NCBI GenBank assembly: GCA_913041535.1
Contig: CAJWJK010000001.1
Span: 124,001 to 188,000, forward strand
Reading direction: 5' to 3'
DNA length: 64,000 bases
From: an uncultured Alphaproteobacteria bacterium
Lineage (GTDB): Bacteria > Pseudomonadota > Alphaproteobacteria > VGEJ01
Part shown: positions 7,503 to 52,303 of the stretch, in pieces
Layout of the letters: every line of letters begins with the position of its first letter
Numbering within the stretch: the stretch's first letter is position 1
Made by a program: the position numbers and the translations under genes
The notes under the pieces: model-generated
The model's database searches: none
Told to the model about the DNA's origin: nothing
Seen by the model: the letters and a program-made list of their open reading frames with translations, nothing else

Positions 7503-8413
7503 TTGGGGAGATCAACAGTCAGTTGAGCGTCCCCAGCGCGTAATCTGTCGTGCGACCTATTTTTATGAAGCTGATCTACTTGGAGGAGTGCCAGTGCACG
7601 GCTTTCTTTGCCAGAACAAAGGAGTCCTACTGAGTTATTAGAGTCATTCAAGATCTTTGTGCCTTGCGGTGGTAGAGGGCCCTCAATGACAACCGGCACA
7701 AGGCGCTTTCTAATTTTGGCACGATAGTGGGTACGAGCAGTTATCTCTTGCCCAATATAACAGCCCTTATCATAGTCAATTCCATGCAACTCGTGGAATC
7801 CGCATTCAAGAGGTAACGACTTCTCAATTAAAATATCTCGGCTACCGTCCGGCAAACCGTACGCGAGACGCCATCCGTCATAAGTTGATGGGCTTGTTTC
7901 ACTAAACCCTTTCGCCTCTAGTGCTTTTGATGGTAACACGTTTGGTAATACTGCACGGGCCCCCATTGTCGCAAGACGTGGGTCCACGTAGATCAGGCCC
8001 TTTCCAGAGCTTGTCCCGAATGATTTAGTGAAACCCTCCTGTGCCTTCAATGAAAGTCTTGTAAGCGCTCTTTCCCCGTAAAGAGCTGCAACAATGAAGT
8101 TGTTTGATATATCTTCAAAGTTTACCCTGGCTCGAAGGCGGTACTTTGTTAGACGTTGTAAAAGGTCTGGGAGGCGCTTAGCTTCGCAGTCCAGTAATAT
8201 GCCCTCCCCGTCAGGGTGATTCATAACAAAGAAATCGTGTAAGTACTTACCTTGTGGTGAAAGTAAAGCAGCGTAAATACTGCACTCATCTGAAAGGCGA
8301 TTCACATCGTTTGTGATAAGCCCCTGTAGAAGGGCGGGTCCATCTGTGCCATTAACCCACAACAGGCCCCTCATGGGTAAAATGCTATGGTATACATTAG
8401 TCATGCATATCAC
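7487..8413 (-). CDS. ygfZ: YgfZ/GcvT-family folate-binding Fe-S assembly protein
   Basis: LLQGLITNDVNRL, CSIYAALLSPQGKYLHDFFV, KGCYIGQEITARTHYR (YgfZ signature). Confidence 0.92.
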   Translation of the reverse strand: MICMTNVYHSILPMRGLLWVNGTDGPALLQGLITNDVNRLSDECSIYAALLSPQGKYLHDFFVMNHPDGEGILLDCEAKRLPDLLQRLTKYRLRARVNFEDISNNFIVAALYGERALTRLSLKAQEGFTKSFGTSSGKGLIYVDPRLATMGARAVLPNVLPSKALEAKGFSETSPSTYDGWRLAYGLPDGSRDILIEKSLPLECGFHELHGIDYDKGCYIGQEITARTHYRAKIRKRLVPVVIEGPLPPQGTKILNDSNNSVGLLCSGKESRALALLQVDQLHKNRSHDRLRAGDAQLTVDLPNWLHL

Positions 8414-8520
8414 TTAATCTGCGAGATCTATCATGGCAAGATATTAATCGAATTTTCGTAGTAGCTATTTTGACATGCCATGCCAGTAATTGACGGGTAA
8501 TTTTCTGGGTTGCGAAGGTC

Positions 8521-9474
8521 ATGAAGGTTCTTTTTATAGGGTCCAACCGTATCGGCGATGCCGTTTTATCAACCGGTCTTGTAGACTATCTTGGCCGCAA
8601 CAACCCTAGTGCTCGCATCACTATTGTTTGCGGTCCGGATGCTGTAAATATATTTGAGGCGGCCCCTCAAGTTGAGCGTATTATCCCCATGGCCAAGCTG
8701 CGTTGGTCTGCGCATTGGTTAGGATTATGGATAGAGACAGTTGGCCATTTCTGGGATTTAGTAGTTGATCTTCGTGCATCTGCTCTAGGGTGGTGTGTGC
8801 CGACGAGGGCAAGGAGGATCATGAGTGTATCGGCAGAACCAGTGCATCGTCTTGTTAGCCTGGCGAAAGTTCTACAGTTGGATCAGCCTCTACCTCCCTG
8901 TGTCTGGACTACAACACGTCATCATGAGGTAGCAAATAATCTTATAGCTGAAGGTGGTCCTGTGTTAGCGATTGGGCCCACAGCTAATTGGGTTGGCAAG
9001 CAATGGCGACCAGAGCGCTTTGCGGAACTGATTGGTCAGCTGACATCACCGAAAGGAATATTGCCGGCTGCCAGGGTTGCTGTATTTGGGGCGGCGGATG
9101 AACGTAAATTTTCAGCAATAACTATTGATAGTATTCCAGCATCACGTCGCATCGACTTGGTCGGTCGGGTAGATCTTTTGACCGCTGCTTCGTGCATAGA
9201 ACGCTGTAGCTTATACATAGGCAATGATTCTGGCCTGATGCATCTCGCTGCCGCAACTGGCACACCAACGCTTGGTTTGTTTGGACCCAGTCGTGAATGC
9301 CATTATGCCCCATGGGGAGAGAAAACAGCTTTCGTCCGTACCGCGCTACGCTATGAGGAGTTAGTTGACGTGCCTGGCTATGACCATCGACGGCAAGAAA
9401 CTCTTATGGATAGTCTAACTGTTGAAAGTGTTGAAGAGGCAGCTATAGCTTTATGGAGGCGGATAGAATTGTGA
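8521..9474 (+). CDS. Glycosyltransferase family 9 (LPS heptosyltransferase-like)
   Basis: SNRIGDAVLSTGLVDYL, GPTANWVGKQWRPERFAEL, LYIGNDSGLMHLAAATGTPTLGLFGPS. Confidence 0.9.
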   Translation: MKVLFIGSNRIGDAVLSTGLVDYLGRNNPSARITIVCGPDAVNIFEAAPQVERIIPMAKLRWSAHWLGLWIETVGHFWDLVVDLRASALGWCVPTRARRIMSVSAEPVHRLVSLAKVLQLDQPLPPCVWTTTRHHEVANNLIAEGGPVLAIGPTANWVGKQWRPERFAELIGQLTSPKGILPAARVAVFGAADERKFSAITIDSIPASRRIDLVGRVDLLTAASCIERCSLYIGNDSGLMHLAAATGTPTLGLFGPSRECHYAPWGEKTAFVRTALRYEELVDVPGYDHRRQETLMDSLTVESVEEAAIALWRRIEL

Positions 9475-42255: not shown

Positions 42256-42551
42256 CCCGTTTTCCAGTGGTGTTTTGGCGACTAATCGATATTTTGATTG
42301 GTATTCAGCCGCTGTGCGAATACTTCAGAAAAATTAACTCGATGCAACATCGGTCTGGCTAATTGTGAGAGTAGTCATAAGACCATATCTAAAAGAAGCC
42401 ATAACACCCGTCGCTATATCTCTGAGTTATTTCAAGCACAGAAACAAATCCAGCCTTGTTGATTAATAAACTTTCGAGTTATTTCGACTAGTAGCCGATA
42501 ATAATCTAGGGTGTTGTGCTTATTGTGAGTTGGCATCTATAGTTGGGCGTT

Positions 42552-42640
42552 ACACTCGGGGGAGCCAAGTCGGCTGAGAGGTTCCGTTATAGGACGACCC
42601 CTCGAACCTGATCCGGATGGAACCGGCGGAGGGAGAGTGC
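42552..42640 (+). promoter_or_regulatory. TPP riboswitch (THI element)
   Basis: ACACTCGGGGGAGCC...CGGCTGAGAG...GACCCCTCGAACCTGATCCGGATGGAACCGGCGGAGGGAGAGTG. Conserved CUGAGA and ACCUGAUC...GGAUnnnACCGGCGnAGGGA. P1 CACTC (42553-42557) pairs with GAGTG (42635-42639). Confidence 0.96.
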
Positions 42641-43431
42641 TTTTGCAGAGCACCACTAAAGTCAGTGAGAGCGTAGAGAGCTCAGAGAGCTTAACGGGTC
42701 GTCATGCAATCGTGCTAAAAAATCTTGGTTTCCGACGTAATGGATTGCTTCTCTTTGATGGCCTCAGTGAACAATTTTCGGCTGGTGAAACGACATGCAT
42801 TTTAGGTGTTAGTGGTGTTGGGAAGTCCTCTTTATTGAGAGTAATTGCGGGACTGCTGCCTGATCCAGAATTTGGGTCGGCGTGCGATGAAGACGGGAGG
42901 TCACTTCGTGGTCGGATTGCATACATGGCTCAGGACGACCTTCTTCTACCATGGGCTAATGTTTTTCGAAACGTGACTTTGGGCTGTCGTCTCCGTGGTG
43001 ACGATATTGATGATGATAACGCGCGTGAGCTAATTCAGTTGGTTGGGCTAGCCGAACATGTAGAGGCACTTCCTCACACATTATCGGGTGGGATGCGGCA
43101 ACGTGTTGCTTTGGCGAGAACTCTCATGGAGAAGCGCCCCATCGCTCTGCTGGACGAGCCGTTTTCCGCCTTAGACGCCCTAACACGTTATCAGCTTCAA
43201 AGCCTTGTCGCTGAACTATTTCGGGGTAGAACGGTGGTCATAGTCACTCATGATCCGGTGGAAGCACTGCGGTTAGGGCATTCAATAAGGGTCATGTATG
43301 GTCGACCCGCCCTGTTGAGCGAACCAATGCGGTTAGGCGGCCAGCCTCCCCGCGACCCTACTGCACCCAAGGTGGCTAGTTTACAGCGGGAATTACTGAA
43401 TCGGCTTGGAATCTCTCCGGCAGAGGTGTGA
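42637..43431 (+). CDS. ABC transporter ATP-binding protein, thiamine/HMP-precursor uptake (ThiZ-like)
   Basis: Walker A LGVSGVGKSS, HTLSGGMRQRVALARTLMEKRPIALLDEPFSALDALTR; downstream of TPP riboswitch. Start GTG 42637 or TTG 42643. Confidence 0.92.
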   Translation: MLLQSTTKVSESVESSESLTGRHAIVLKNLGFRRNGLLLFDGLSEQFSAGETTCILGVSGVGKSSLLRVIAGLLPDPEFGSACDEDGRSLRGRIAYMAQDDLLLPWANVFRNVTLGCRLRGDDIDDDNARELIQLVGLAEHVEALPHTLSGGMRQRVALARTLMEKRPIALLDEPFSALDALTRYQLQSLVAELFRGRTVVIVTHDPVEALRLGHSIRVMYGRPALLSEPMRLGGQPPRDPTAPKVASLQRELLNRLGISPAEV

Positions 43432-48880: not shown

Positions 48881-50704
48881 ATGTGCGGTATCATCGGCAC
48901 GCTTGGGCATGCAGATGTTGCTCAGGACTTACTTGAAGGACTGAAGCGCCTAGAATATCGCGGGTATGATTCGGCGGGTATCGCGACGCTCTACAATGGC
49001 TCTATAGAACGTAGGCGTGCTGAAGGTAAACTAATCAACCTTGGTAAGGTGATTGAAAAGGAACCTCTTCAGGGTGATATAGGTATCGGGCACACTCGGT
49101 GGGCGACCCATGGTGTGCCCAGTGAGCGTAATGCGCATCCCCATGCCACTGATCGCGTTGCCGTGGTGCACAATGGCATAATCGAAAATTTTCGCGAACT
49201 GCGACGGGAGCTTGAAAGTTCTGGCCGCATTTTCGGGACCGATACCGATACTGAGGTTATTGTGCAACTTATTCACCATAACCTCAGCCAGGGTCTTAAA
49301 CCGGTAGATGCTACTAGTGCTGCACTTGAAAGACTTGAAGGTGCGTTTGCACTTGCGATTCTTTTTGCCGAAGAACAGGAATTAATGATAGGAGCCCGCC
49401 GCGGCAGTCCGCTCTGCATCGGTTGGGGTCAGAAGGAGATGAGCCTTGGTTCTGATGCGCTTGCGCTCGCTGGTTTAAGCAATCGTATTTCGTATCTTGA
49501 AGATGGTGATTGGGCAGTTATCACGCGTGACGGTGCAACGGTAAGAAATACACATGGCGAATTGGTTGAGCGCGCAATACGTACTACCGCATTGTCAGAA
49601 AAGCAGATGAGTAAGGGTAATTATCCCCATTTCATGGCAAAAGAGATTCATGAGCAGCCCACTGTTATTGGCCAAACTTTAAACACGTTTTTTAATCCTC
49701 TAGACCGGTCAATTAGTTTACCCGAACTGCCTTTCAACCTGTTAGAAATTGAGCGCATCACCCTGATTGCCTGTGGCACGTCATTCTATGCGGCTATGAT
49801 TGCCAAATATTGGTTTGAGCAAATTGCTAGAATATCGGTGGACATCGATATTGCATCAGAATTTCGGTATCGCGGAACGCCGATGGCCAAAGGAGGGTTA
49901 GCCTTATTTATATCTCAGTCTGGTGAAACTGCGGACACCCTTGCGGCACTGCGTTTCTGTCGAAAGCAAGGACAGCATATAGCAGGCATAGTTAATGTGT
50001 CCGAGAGCACCATTGATAGAGAGGCGGATATTGTATTTAACACACATGCCGGACCTGAGATCGGTGTTGCGTCGACTAAGGCCTTCACGTGTCAGTTGGT
50101 AACACTGGCTTGTATTGTAATTGCTACTGCACGTGTACGGGGTGCAATTTCAAGAGAGCAAGAACAAGAGCTTTCATCCGCGATAACAGAGGTTCCCGCA
50201 CGAGCGGCAGAGATCTTGAATCACGACGATTCTTTGAGGCAGCTCTCAAACGTACTGGCTGGGGCCCGCGATGTTCTATTCATTGGGCGCGGAGCTAGTT
50301 ATCCTATTGCCCTTGAGGGCGCTCTAAAGTTAAAGGAAATTTCGTACATTCATGCGGAGGGTTTCGCCGCAGGTGAGCTTAAACACGGACCCATAGCATT
50401 GATCGACCAATCAGTGCCGGTCATTGTTATTGCTCCGTCTGATGCCCTTTTTGAAAAAACTGCATCTAATGTGTCCGAGGTGGTGGCGCGTGGTGCTCAA
50501 GTAATTTTTCTATCAGACTCGAAGGGAATAGCTGCGCTAGGCGATCAGGCAAAAGAATCGATAGAACTTCCCACAGTGCACTCCTTTGTTGCCCCAATAC
50601 TTTATGCTTTGCCAGTACAGATTCTGGCTTACCACACCGCCGTATTGAAGGGTACGGACATAGATCAGCCGCGCAACCTAGCTAAATCCGTGACCGTGGA
50701 GTAG
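48881..50704 (+). CDS. glmS: Glutamine--fructose-6-phosphate aminotransferase (isomerizing)
   Basis: MCGIIGTLGHADVAQDLLEGLKRLEYRGYDSAGIA ... DQPRNLAKSVTVE at C-terminus. Confidence 0.97.
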   Translation: MCGIIGTLGHADVAQDLLEGLKRLEYRGYDSAGIATLYNGSIERRRAEGKLINLGKVIEKEPLQGDIGIGHTRWATHGVPSERNAHPHATDRVAVVHNGIIENFRELRRELESSGRIFGTDTDTEVIVQLIHHNLSQGLKPVDATSAALERLEGAFALAILFAEEQELMIGARRGSPLCIGWGQKEMSLGSDALALAGLSNRISYLEDGDWAVITRDGATVRNTHGELVERAIRTTALSEKQMSKGNYPHFMAKEIHEQPTVIGQTLNTFFNPLDRSISLPELPFNLLEIERITLIACGTSFYAAMIAKYWFEQIARISVDIDIASEFRYRGTPMAKGGLALFISQSGETADTLAALRFCRKQGQHIAGIVNVSESTIDREADIVFNTHAGPEIGVASTKAFTCQLVTLACIVIATARVRGAISREQEQELSSAITEVPARAAEILNHDDSLRQLSNVLAGARDVLFIGRGASYPIALEGALKLKEISYIHAEGFAAGELKHGPIALIDQSVPVIVIAPSDALFEKTASNVSEVVARGAQVIFLSDSKGIAALGDQAKESIELPTVHSFVAPILYALPVQILAYHTAVLKGTDIDQPRNLAKSVTVE

Positions 50705-50705
50705 T
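50690..50705 (+). repeat. Direct repeat copy 1 (glmS 3' terminus, candidate attL)
   Basis: GTGACCGTGGAGTAGT; matches 51990-52005 GTGACCGTGGAATAGT with one mismatch. Confidence 0.75.
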
Positions 50706-50707
50706 TC

Positions 50708-50721
50708 TGTAAGGGGGTACT
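50708..50721 (+). repeat. Terminal inverted repeat, left
   Basis: TGTAAGGGGGTACT; exact reverse complement at 51966-51979. Confidence 0.75.
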
Positions 50722-50725
50722 TGAA

Positions 50726-51643
50726 ATGGTTGAAACTAAATTCTTAGATGATTTCATCCTTCAGTCCTCCACTGGGAACCTAAAAACAAAACACCTTTAT
50801 CCCCAAGAAGTACAAGATTTACAGATAAAAGTATCTTTCGGTATGGGCACCCCTACCCATGTTCCTTGGATCTCCTTTTTGGGTCCTGGAATGTCTACAA
50901 GTAATGGTTACTACCCCGTTTATCTATTTTATAAAAAAGAAAATATTCTCGTTCTTGCGTATGGGATAAGTGAAACATTTATTCCAGAAGATACATGGAC
51001 ATATGAAATTCATAATTCATCCCAAAAGATTTCGGATTTTATAGATAACCCTTTTAGGTATGGAGACTCGTATGTTTATAAATATTACGTGCCAAAGATT
51101 GAAAATGACTCGGTACGTTATTTTGTTGATGAACAGGAAGTCGATGCAAAAATAATCTCCAATGATTTAGAATCTCTATTAAACAATTATAAGACTTTCT
51201 TGGATATCGCTGTAAAGGATGAGAGTTCCGACCTGAGCAAAGGTCTTTTTTATATGGAGCAGCAACTCGAAGATTTTATAATTGAAAATTGGGATAACAC
51301 GGAGTTTGGAAAAAAATATGACCTTATCTTCGAAGATGGTGAACTCAAAAGTCAACAGTACAGAACCAGTATAGGAAATATAGATATCCTGGCAGTAGAT
51401 AAGGTCTCAAAAGATTACGCAGTGATTGAGTTAAAAAGGAACCAGACCAGTGACGATACAATAGGTCAGGTTACCAGATACATGGGATGGGTCTTAGAAC
51501 ATCTTCAGAACGAAAATGTAAGGGGCGTAATTGTTGCTGGAAAGTTTGATAACAAATTATTTTACGCACAAAAAGTGATCAAAAACGTAGAAGTTTTCCT
51601 TTACGAAGTGGGTTTTCGACTTAACGAATATAAAAAGAACTAG
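50726..51643 (+). CDS. Predicted modification-dependent restriction nuclease: McrB-like N-terminal (DUF3578-type) domain fused to NucS/DUF91-like PD-(D/E)XK domain
   Basis: N-terminal region FGMGTPTHVPWISFLGPGMSTSNGYYPVYLFYKKENILVLAYGISET. C-terminal SIGNIDILAVD...YAVIELKRNQTSDDTIGQVTRYMGWV (GxxD, ExK, downstream Q) as in NucS. Shine-Dalgarno AAGGGGG inside the left inverted repeat. Confidence 0.7.
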   Translation: MVETKFLDDFILQSSTGNLKTKHLYPQEVQDLQIKVSFGMGTPTHVPWISFLGPGMSTSNGYYPVYLFYKKENILVLAYGISETFIPEDTWTYEIHNSSQKISDFIDNPFRYGDSYVYKYYVPKIENDSVRYFVDEQEVDAKIISNDLESLLNNYKTFLDIAVKDESSDLSKGLFYMEQQLEDFIIENWDNTEFGKKYDLIFEDGELKSQQYRTSIGNIDILAVDKVSKDYAVIELKRNQTSDDTIGQVTRYMGWVLEHLQNENVRGVIVAGKFDNKLFYAQKVIKNVEVFLYEVGFRLNEYKKN

Positions 51644-51940
51644 ACCTGATTAATGAGAGTCATATCCAAAAACCAGAGATCAAAATTAGATATCGTCATT
51701 TGACACCCTTTGGATATCCGTTGGTCACGAAGACGTCTCTTTTTGATAATTGAGTGTATATGGGAAGAACCAAATGTCTTCCCTCTCGCTGACTTGTATC
51801 CATTATCGTTCAACCATCTTGCGATCTTTTCTAACGTCCAACCTTTGTCTCTAAGGTCTGAGACCGTATCGTAAAGAAATTGTTGATGATTGGAGTAGGG
51901 TGCAACCCACAGATTTGAGGTGCGCAGATCTACGTCGAAG
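51640..51940 (-). CDS. Small protein with helix-turn-helix/recombinase-like motif (ORF 51640-52041; true N-terminus uncertain)
   Basis: LRDKGWTLEKIARWLNDNGYKSARGKTFGSSHIHSIIKKRRLRDQRISK resembles low-complexity 'RGKxF' recombinase-associated motifs. The N-terminal extension reads across the repeats. Confidence 0.5.
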
Positions 51941-51949
51941 GTAAAATAG

Positions 51950-52303
51950 GTGATGATGTCGCTTGAGTACCCCCTTACACCGGTATTCTGTGACCGTGGA
52001 ATAGTGGGGTTCGGTGGTAAGTCATCCACGGAATCCAACACAGAAGTTTACCTAACATTCCATTTGAAAATCCGTGCCTCACATCTGAATGCTCAGACTT
52101 ACTCTCAATATCAGCAATTTCTATACCAAGAGATCACCGATTTTAGAAAGATGGGTTGGACGTTCACAATAATTTCAGAACGACTCAAAAGTGAAAATAT
52201 AGAACGAATTGGTATACCCGAAGACATAAGAATTAATGTTACTAAGGGAATGATAAAGTATCTTGAGAGGCATAGAAGGTCTCTAGAGAAATTGACCAAC
52301 TAG
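51950..52303 (+). CDS. Small hypothetical protein, divergent paralogue of the 51640 minus-strand ORF (start uncertain)
   Basis: EVYLTFHLKIRASHLNAQTYSQYQQFLYQEITDFRKMGWTFTIISERL aligns without gaps to YFTFDVDLRTSNLWVAPYSNHQQFLYDTVSDLRDKGWTLEKIARWL. Confidence 0.5.
   Translation: MMMSLEYPLTPVFCDRGIVGFGGKSSTESNTEVYLTFHLKIRASHLNAQTYSQYQQFLYQEITDFRKMGWTFTIISERLKSENIERIGIPEDIRINVTKGMIKYLERHRRSLEKLTN
51966..51979 (-). repeat. Terminal inverted repeat, right
   Basis: AGTACCCCCTTACA, exact reverse complement of 50708-50721. Confidence 0.75.
51990..52005 (+). repeat. Direct repeat copy 2 of glmS 3' end (candidate attR)
   Basis: GTGACCGTGGAATAGT. Confidence 0.75.

What the first reader, a model, noticed from the sequence alone, without database searches (positions are those of the whole stretch)
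50726..51643. Candidate single-protein modification-dependent restriction enzyme: McrB-like N-domain fused to NucS-like nuclease
The N-terminal half (FGMGTPTHVPWISFLGPGMSTSNGYYPVYLFYKKENILVLAYGISET) resembles DUF3578/McrB N-terminal modified-base-binding domains. The C-terminal half (GNIDIL...YAVIELKR...IGQVTRYMGWV) carries the PD-(D/E)XK D-ExK-Q arrangement of NucS/DUF91. No GTPase or helicase is present in the ORF, so recognition and cleavage may be in one 305-aa polypeptide. It sits directly behind glmS with its Shine-Dalgarno inside the cassette inverted repeat.
Basis: partly seen in the sequence, partly recalled or inferred. Interest (0 to 1): 0.72.

Follow-up and report, generated by a model that had tools for sequence, protein, structure and literature searches.

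The report
One-piece methyl-DNA cutter in mobile cassette
A single 305-residue protein joins the modified-cytosine reader of the E. coli enzyme McrB to a NucS-type DNA-cutting domain, and it is carried by a tiny mobile element lodged at the end of glmS; relatives ride similar tiny islands in ocean bacteria, which suggests a portable one-gene defence against phages with modified DNA.

Summary
Residues 6-123 match EcoKMcrB-N (phmmer 5e-20) and the AlphaFold model (pLDDT 84.6) matches solved McrB-N/DNA structures (TM 0.75-0.81). Residues 198-276 are NucS_C, with D220/E235/K237 aligned to the NucS active site. No GTPase, helicase or methyltransferase lies beside it. Best reading: a one-chain, NTP-independent, modified-cytosine-dependent (type IV-like) endonuclease. 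The fold is shown; the activity is inferred.

(1) Relatives (56-66% identical) occur in SAR11 and marine Chloroflexi; in SAR11 most sit in integrase-less 1-2 kb islands flanked by tRNA/tmRNA repeats, where the same nuclease half also carries other N-domains. (2) Here the gene is cargo of a 1.28-kb element with a duplicated glmS 3' end (17/19) and 14-bp inverted repeats. It also carries a tiny recombinase-domain protein whose four relatives in 188 genomes all lie directly behind glmS; one (G911) repeats the same end geometry with other candidate defence cargo.

A new variant of a known kind (reader-nuclease fusion), on a possibly undescribed glmS-targeted mini-element.

The parts
50726..51643 (+). 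Fused gene: ADAM/MrcB_N (McrB-N-like) reader, residues ~6-158; disordered linker ~161-174; NucS-type PD-(D/E)XK nuclease, residues ~176-300
50714..50718 (+). GGGGG Shine-Dalgarno-like run, inside the left inverted-repeat arm
   Evidence: sequence
50687..50705 (+). 3' end of glmS, left copy of the att-like direct repeat
50708..50721 (+). Left inverted-repeat arm TGTAAGGGGGTACT, 3 nt behind the glmS stop codon
51966..51979 (-). Right inverted-repeat arm, exact complement of the left arm
51987..52005 (+). Copy of the glmS 3' end (17/19), right att-like repeat, 7 nt behind the right arm
51640..51966 (-). rec1: small recombinase DNA-binding-domain protein (PF07508 segment) at the right end of the element; no ordinary start codon inside the element (the listed ORF runs to 52041)
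51950..52303 (+). rec2: diverged homologue of rec1, starting behind the duplicated glmS tail; probably an older occupant of the site
48881..50704 (+). glmS, host gene whose 3' end is the insertion site and probable source of read-through transcription

Best explanation
The gene encodes a self-contained modification-dependent (type IV-like) endonuclease. The N-domain binds DNA, flips a base and accepts modified cytosine (5mC, 5hmC or 4mC) in a McrB-N-type pocket. A flexible linker tethers a NucS-type PD-(D/E)XK domain that cuts nearby without GTP hydrolysis or translocation, probably as a dimer or on two bound sites. It would guard against phage or plasmid DNA with modified cytosine. The gene is cargo of a ~1.28-kb mobile element at the 3' end of glmS, bounded by a duplicated glmS tail and inverted repeats and also carrying a tiny recombinase-domain protein; the nuclease is probably expressed by read-through from glmS, with a Shine-Dalgarno supplied by the repeat. 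Shown: the two domain families and folds, conserved active-site and pocket residues, no GTPase or methyltransferase beside it, duplicated glmS tail, inverted repeats, recurrence of rec genes at glmS, mini-island setting of relatives. Inferred: modified-base specificity, cleavage, defence role, read-through expression, mobility.
For: Both domains above Pfam cut-offs. EcoKMcrB-N by phmmer 5e-20 and by family profile about 7e-24. Foldseek to McrB-N/DNA structures, TM 0.75-0.81, and to NucS/EndoMS from a model of pLDDT 84.6. D220/E235/K237/Q248 and W48/Y63/L67 invariant in eight full-length relatives; D, E, K aligned to NucS D160, E174, K176. C-half in the candidate defence family PDC-S02, 3.5e-44. 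No methyltransferase among the element's ORFs or seen among the ORFs listed for the relatives' islands, as expected of a modification-dependent enzyme. Eight SAR11 loci carry the gene or a same-nuclease relative between tRNA/tmRNA direct repeats. glmS-tail duplication and inverted repeats here and the same geometry in G911. rec at glmS in all five genomes that have it. Protein groups with marine Chloroflexi proteins, support 1.0.
Against: No activity data. The residue that fills the flipped-base gap in McrB (Y41) is M40 here and Q in most SAR11 members; Y41Q weakens binding in McrB (PMC3874153). The gene is rare and one SAR11 copy is frame-disrupted (L014). No independent promoter was demonstrated. 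The element's movement has not been seen, and no empty site from a sister strain was available.
Confidence: 0.7

Rival explanations
1. The reader keeps the McrB-N fold but reads something else: another modified base, a hypermodified base or an unmodified sequence. It is then a modification-dependent or sequence-specific nuclease of different specificity.
For: Y41 position changed to M/Q, and the flanking T42 position varies. The solved L68F/L68Y and Y41F McrB-N mutants (titles) show that single pocket changes in this fold have been worth testing for altered recognition. Other N-domains replace ADAM on the same nuclease.
Against: W48, Y63 and L67 are kept in all eight members. With no methyltransferase beside it, a nuclease for an unmodified sequence would attack its own host.
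Confidence: 0.2
2. It is a nicking or repair enzyme, or a nuclease that senses DNA structure (mismatch, as NucS/EndoMS), rather than a restriction enzyme.
For: The nuclease domain belongs to the NucS_C family.
Against: The NucS N-domain is replaced by ADAM; the NucS equivalog score is far below cut-off (47.4 against 216). Sporadic occurrence on mobile islands with swapped N-domains fits defence, not housekeeping repair.
Confidence: 0.07
3. The glmS setting is a decayed remnant, e.g. of a Tn7-like or large serine recombinase element: the rec ORFs are leftover fragments and the cassette is no longer, or never was, a mobile unit of its own.
For: rec1 matches only an internal segment of a serine integrase (phrog_95, positions 272-313 of 651) and lacks an ordinary start codon inside the element. 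Element ends read TGT...ACA as in Tn7-like elements (from memory) and the site is glmS.
Against: No transposase or Tns genes in the element and no 5-bp target duplication (AGTTC against CCGGT); Tn7 does not copy the glmS end (general knowledge). rec homologues of about 66-108 aa recur 24-41 nt behind glmS in four other families, which random fragments would not. G911 repeats the end spacing exactly.
Confidence: 0.3

Closest known systems
McrBC of E. coli K-12, McrB N-domain (ADAM/DUF3578)
   Same: Same reader fold and pocket residues W49/Y64/L68.
   Different: No GTPase domain and no McrC; the nuclease is in the same chain and of NucS type; Y41 replaced by M.
NucS/EndoMS mismatch endonuclease
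   Same: C-terminal PD-(D/E)XK domain, active-site D/E/K aligned.
   Different: NucS N-domain replaced by ADAM; not within the NucS equivalog.
Single-chain reader-nuclease type IV enzymes (MspJI and AspBHI SRA-type, winged-helix fusions, PMC11037411)
   Same: Reader plus nuclease in one chain, NTP-free by domain content, no methyltransferase partner.
   Different: ADAM reader with a NucS-type nuclease; I found no published example of this pair in the open-access papers searched.
ADAM-HNH and ADAM-NOV_C proteins (L043, L044 found here)
   Same: ADAM reader fused to a nuclease-type domain without a GTPase.
   Different: Different catalytic domain; low identity.
PDC-S02 candidate defence family (PADLOC)
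   Same: C-half matches at 3.5e-44; the SAR11 island protein L031 is a full-length member.
   Different: N-half is ADAM instead of the PDC-S02 N-domain.
Additive flexible islands / tRNA-repeat gene cassettes of streamlined marine bacteria (PMC7771536, PMC10872708)
   Same: Small cassettes flanked by a repeat of the target gene's end, no integrase; the SAR11 relatives fit well.
   Different: In the window the target is glmS rather than a tRNA, with inverted repeats and a rec gene.
Tn7 and Tn7-like transposons
   Same: Site behind glmS; inverted repeats at the ends.
   Different: No Tns proteins, no 5-bp duplication; the glmS tail is duplicated instead.

Membership tests
ADAM / MrcB_N (PF12102) reader | Profile match above the curated cut-off and McrB-N fold | tested here: met
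   35.1 bits against 25; Foldseek TM 0.75-0.81
ADAM / MrcB_N (PF12102) reader | Pocket residues W49, Y64, L68 | tested here: met
   W48, Y63, L67 invariant
ADAM / MrcB_N (PF12102) reader | Gap-filling residue Y41 (described as non-conserved) | tested here: not met
   M40; Q in most SAR11 members (PMC3874153)
ADAM / MrcB_N (PF12102) reader | Binding of modified cytosine by base flipping | not testable with these tools
   needs biochemistry
   no AAA domain; McrB equivalog 75.4 bits against 637; no McrC among neighbouring ORFs
NucS/EndoMS | NucS_C nuclease domain with catalytic D, E, K | tested here: met
   41.4 bits against 24; alignment to 2vld
NucS/EndoMS | Whole-protein NucS family including its N-domain | tested here: not met
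   equivalog 47.4 bits against 216; N-half is ADAM
Type IV modification-dependent restriction enzyme | Modified-base reader plus nuclease, no cognate methyltransferase beside it | tested here: met
Type IV modification-dependent restriction enzyme | Cleavage dependent on modified DNA | not testable with these tools
   needs biochemistry
PDC-S02 | Full-length profile match | tested here: not met
   positions 152-306 of 308 only
Integrative island with att repeats | Direct repeat of the target gene's 3' end at both boundaries | tested here: met
   17/19 copy of the glmS tail, 0 of 60 shuffles; exact tRNA/tmRNA repeats in eight SAR11 loci
Integrative island with att repeats | Integrase or recombinase with a catalytic domain inside | tested here: not met
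   only a PF07508 segment in rec1
Integrative island with att repeats | Excision or circular form, empty site | not tested
   no sister strain held: only one genome in the genus
Tn7-like transposon | Tns proteins and 5-bp target duplication | tested here: not met
   none in the element; flanks AGTTC and CCGGT differ

The most novel reading that the evidence does not exclude
The nuclease is cargo of an undescribed family of minimal mobile elements that target the 3' end of glmS. Each is bounded by a glmS-tail repeat plus inverted repeats at fixed spacing (3 nt behind the stop codon on the left, 7 nt before the tail copy on the right) and carries a ~70-110-aa recombinase DNA-binding protein without a catalytic domain. 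The interior can flip between the inverted repeats (rec is next to glmS in G911, the nuclease is next to glmS here), so that glmS read-through would switch between the element's own gene and a defence gene.
Probability: 0.3. Interest if true: 0.78.

Novelty: new variant of a known kind. Interest (0 to 1): 0.62.

Why it matters
If active, it is a minimal form of McrB-type recognition: modified-cytosine reading and cutting in one 305-aa chain without GTP, a possible tool for mapping modified cytosine and a test of how ADAM, DUF3427 and other N-domains are shuffled onto one nuclease. It also suggests how genome-streamlined ocean bacteria may carry anti-phage defence: single genes on 1-2 kb islands, shared between phyla (Pseudomonadota and Chloroflexi) and switched on by read-through from a host gene. 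The recurrent rec protein at glmS makes a possible new kind of site-specific mini-element directly testable.

Tried and rejected
Inverted repeat as a repeated cassette family in the genome: rejected, the third exact copy is inside an ORF. Phage records: no relative. Plasmids: no record covers 80% of the protein; the listed matches lie in the nuclease half or extend only partly into the rest. The viral-contig scan did not complete, so viral relatives remain untested. A first AlphaFold model from 8 sequences was weak (pLDDT 68.8); a 24-row alignment gave 84.6. A Tn7-type 5-bp duplication was looked for and not found. glmS-tail copies were not found behind the rec genes of G893, G842 and G927; the G893 and G927 contigs end near the site. 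The glmS-linked DUF3427-NucS gene in G1159 has no rec gene and no tail copy. The nearest family member's genome (G001) has a different gene order behind glmS, so it gave no empty site. A literature search for a described ADAM-NucS fusion found none, but only open-access papers are held.

Full report
Observation. The ORF at 50726-51643 is intact, 305 aa, with an ATG start 21 nt behind the glmS stop codon. Pfam finds MrcB_N (residues 26-83, 35.1 bits, cut-off 25) and NucS_C (198-276, 41.4 bits, cut-off 24). NCBIfam gives the McrB and NucS equivalogs partial matches far below their cut-offs. The 14-bp inverted repeat around the gene is exact (50708-50721 / 51966-51979) and its left arm holds the Shine-Dalgarno-like GGGGG.

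Reader domain. phmmer against PDB sequences gives EcoKMcrB-N at 5e-20 over residues 6-123; a family profile extends the match to residue 158 at 7e-24. AlphaFold on a 24-row alignment gives pLDDT 84.6 with two domains and a disordered linker at 161-174. Foldseek returns 20 McrB-N/DNA chains at E 5e-11 to 7e-10, TM to target 0.75-0.81. EcoKMcrB W49, Y64, L68 correspond to W48, Y63, L67 and are invariant in eight full-length members; Y41 corresponds to M40 (Q in four of the five SAR11 members compared). In McrB, Y64 and L68 contact the methyl group, while the residue that fills the gap left by the flipped base, Y41, is described as non-conserved, and Y41A/Q weaken binding (PMC3874153). The pocket is thus kept and the gap-filling residue is changed: modified-cytosine reading is likely, and sequence context may differ.

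Nuclease domain. The C-half aligns with P. abyssi NucS so that D220, E235 and K237 fall on D160, E174 and K176, with Q248 also invariant; Foldseek agrees (2vld, 5gke). PADLOC puts the C-half in the candidate defence family PDC-S02 at 3.5e-44, but only over positions 152-306 of 308. In SAR11 and SAR202-order genomes the same nuclease half is joined to other N-domains: the PDC-S02 N-domain (L031, full-length match 9.9e-136), a DUF3427-like domain (L032, L033, L034, L061; some of these scores are slightly below the curated cut-off), and others without a Pfam hit (L055, L056, L058). Conversely ADAM is joined to what reads as a McrB-type NTPase (L041, L042, from the ORF sequence), to HNH (L043), to NOV_C (L044) and to Sel1 repeats plus AlbA_2 (L054).

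Setting of the relatives. The search for related loci found seven loci at 59-66% identity: one Chloroflexi MAG and six Pelagibacteraceae genomes. In these SAR11 loci and those, the gene lies between direct repeats of a tRNA or tmRNA 3' part: L009 48 bp, L010 49, L012 53, L013 26, L014 45, L030 20, L031 54, L032 25; islands of 1083 to 1911 bp, with no integrase recognised by eye among their ORFs. No complete tmRNA was found next to the L030 copies, although the repeat core is the tmRNA one. The L031 island holds a single gene whose start lies 5 nt behind the repeat. L033 and L034 have no such repeat spanning the gene; L008 and L011 end too soon downstream to tell. The gene is rare: 2 of 397 genomes of the SAR11 family have the ADAM form, plus 4 with other N-domains; 1 of 399 Pseudomonadota genomes, the window's own; 2 of 197 in the order of the Chloroflexi MAG, which I call the SAR202 order (an inference). 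A tree places the window protein with the two Chloroflexi proteins (support 1.0), apart from SAR11, so transfer between phyla is likely. tRNA-repeat cassettes as such are known as additive flexible islands in streamlined marine bacteria (PMC7771536, PMC10872708).

The element in the window. The last 19 nt of glmS (50687-50705) recur at 51987-52005 (17/19; best of 60 shuffles 14/19). Between the copies lie the inverted repeats, the nuclease gene and, on the minus strand, a small protein (rec1) with the PF07508 segment of large serine recombinases but no catalytic domain. A diverged homologue (rec2, 33-40% identical) lies just behind the second glmS tail. A search of 188 related genomes found four more rec proteins, in four families, and all four lie directly behind glmS, at about 24-41 nt. 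rec2 has a similar spacing from the duplicated tail. One of these genomes (G911, L071) repeats the end geometry: glmS stop codon, 3 nt, 15-bp repeat; 5 kb on, the inverted copy, exactly 7 nt, then a glmS-tail copy (15/19, 0 of 60 shuffles); the window also has 3 nt and 7 nt. The G911 arms are themselves partly palindromic, so there the inverted reading is less certain. The G911 element carries a GIY-YIG protein and a PDC-S11 candidate defence protein with a sub-threshold NucS_C match. The other three rec loci showed no second tail copy, so the element claim rests on two examples plus the rec-glmS association.

Orientation. In G911 rec is next to glmS; in the window rec1 is at the far end and reversed. 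If the segment between the window's repeats were turned round, rec1 would sit about 31 nt behind glmS, within the range of the other genomes (my count). I infer, without proof, that the segment inverted after insertion, which put the nuclease behind glmS. Integration in the opposite orientation is less consistent with the tail repeats being in direct orientation. The cassette has 37.2% GC, lower than all 628 sampled stretches of its size in the window.

Mechanism. Shown: folds, residues, absence of GTPase and methyltransferase, tail duplication, inverted repeats, recurrence at glmS. Unknown: cut distance, oligomeric state, and how the element moves.

Limits. 

Noticed in passing
window 51640-52303; L071, L072, L073, L074: Tiny PF07508-segment proteins: all six copies in five genomes lie directly behind glmS or a copy of its 3' end. 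A candidate family of glmS-targeted elements.
   Followed up: partly
L075 (G1159:C15), offset 7643-8608: A DUF3427-like/NucS nuclease lies directly behind glmS in a genome of the Chloroflexi MAG's order, with no rec gene or tail copy: an independent occurrence of this nuclease at the same site.
   Followed up: partly
L071 4778-9800: Defence-like cargo behind glmS in G911: GIY-YIG protein, PDC-S11 candidate defence protein (427 bits), DUF6946 protein, between tail repeats 5 kb apart.
   Followed up: partly
L062/L031 (G635:C10): A 1083-bp island with a single gene between two exact 54-bp copies of a tRNA-Leu end; the gene starts 5 nt behind the repeat, so it is probably transcribed with the tRNA.
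   Followed up: partly
L009 5897 and 7542; L010 5896 and 7500: A second direct repeat of ~30 nt about 60 nt inside each tRNA repeat of the SAR11 islands, possibly arm-type recombinase binding sites.
   Followed up: no
L009, L014, L030, L032, L074: Short signal-peptide-like proteins starting MKKLLGIVVLGLL or MKKLLLILICLF recur as companion cargo in these mini-islands.
   Followed up: no
L054 (P0002, 572 aa): Sel1 repeats + ADAM reader + Schlafen AlbA_2 domain in one protein of the SAR202-like order: another unusual ADAM fusion.
   Followed up: no
L043 1132-2061; L044 1369-2460: Single-chain ADAM-HNH (309 aa) and ADAM-NOV_C (363 aa) proteins in Pseudomonadota, further candidates for GTP-free ADAM enzymes.
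   Followed up: no
window 42548-42651: TPP riboswitch just upstream of an ABC-transporter / NMT1-like gene set; ordinary.
   Followed up: no
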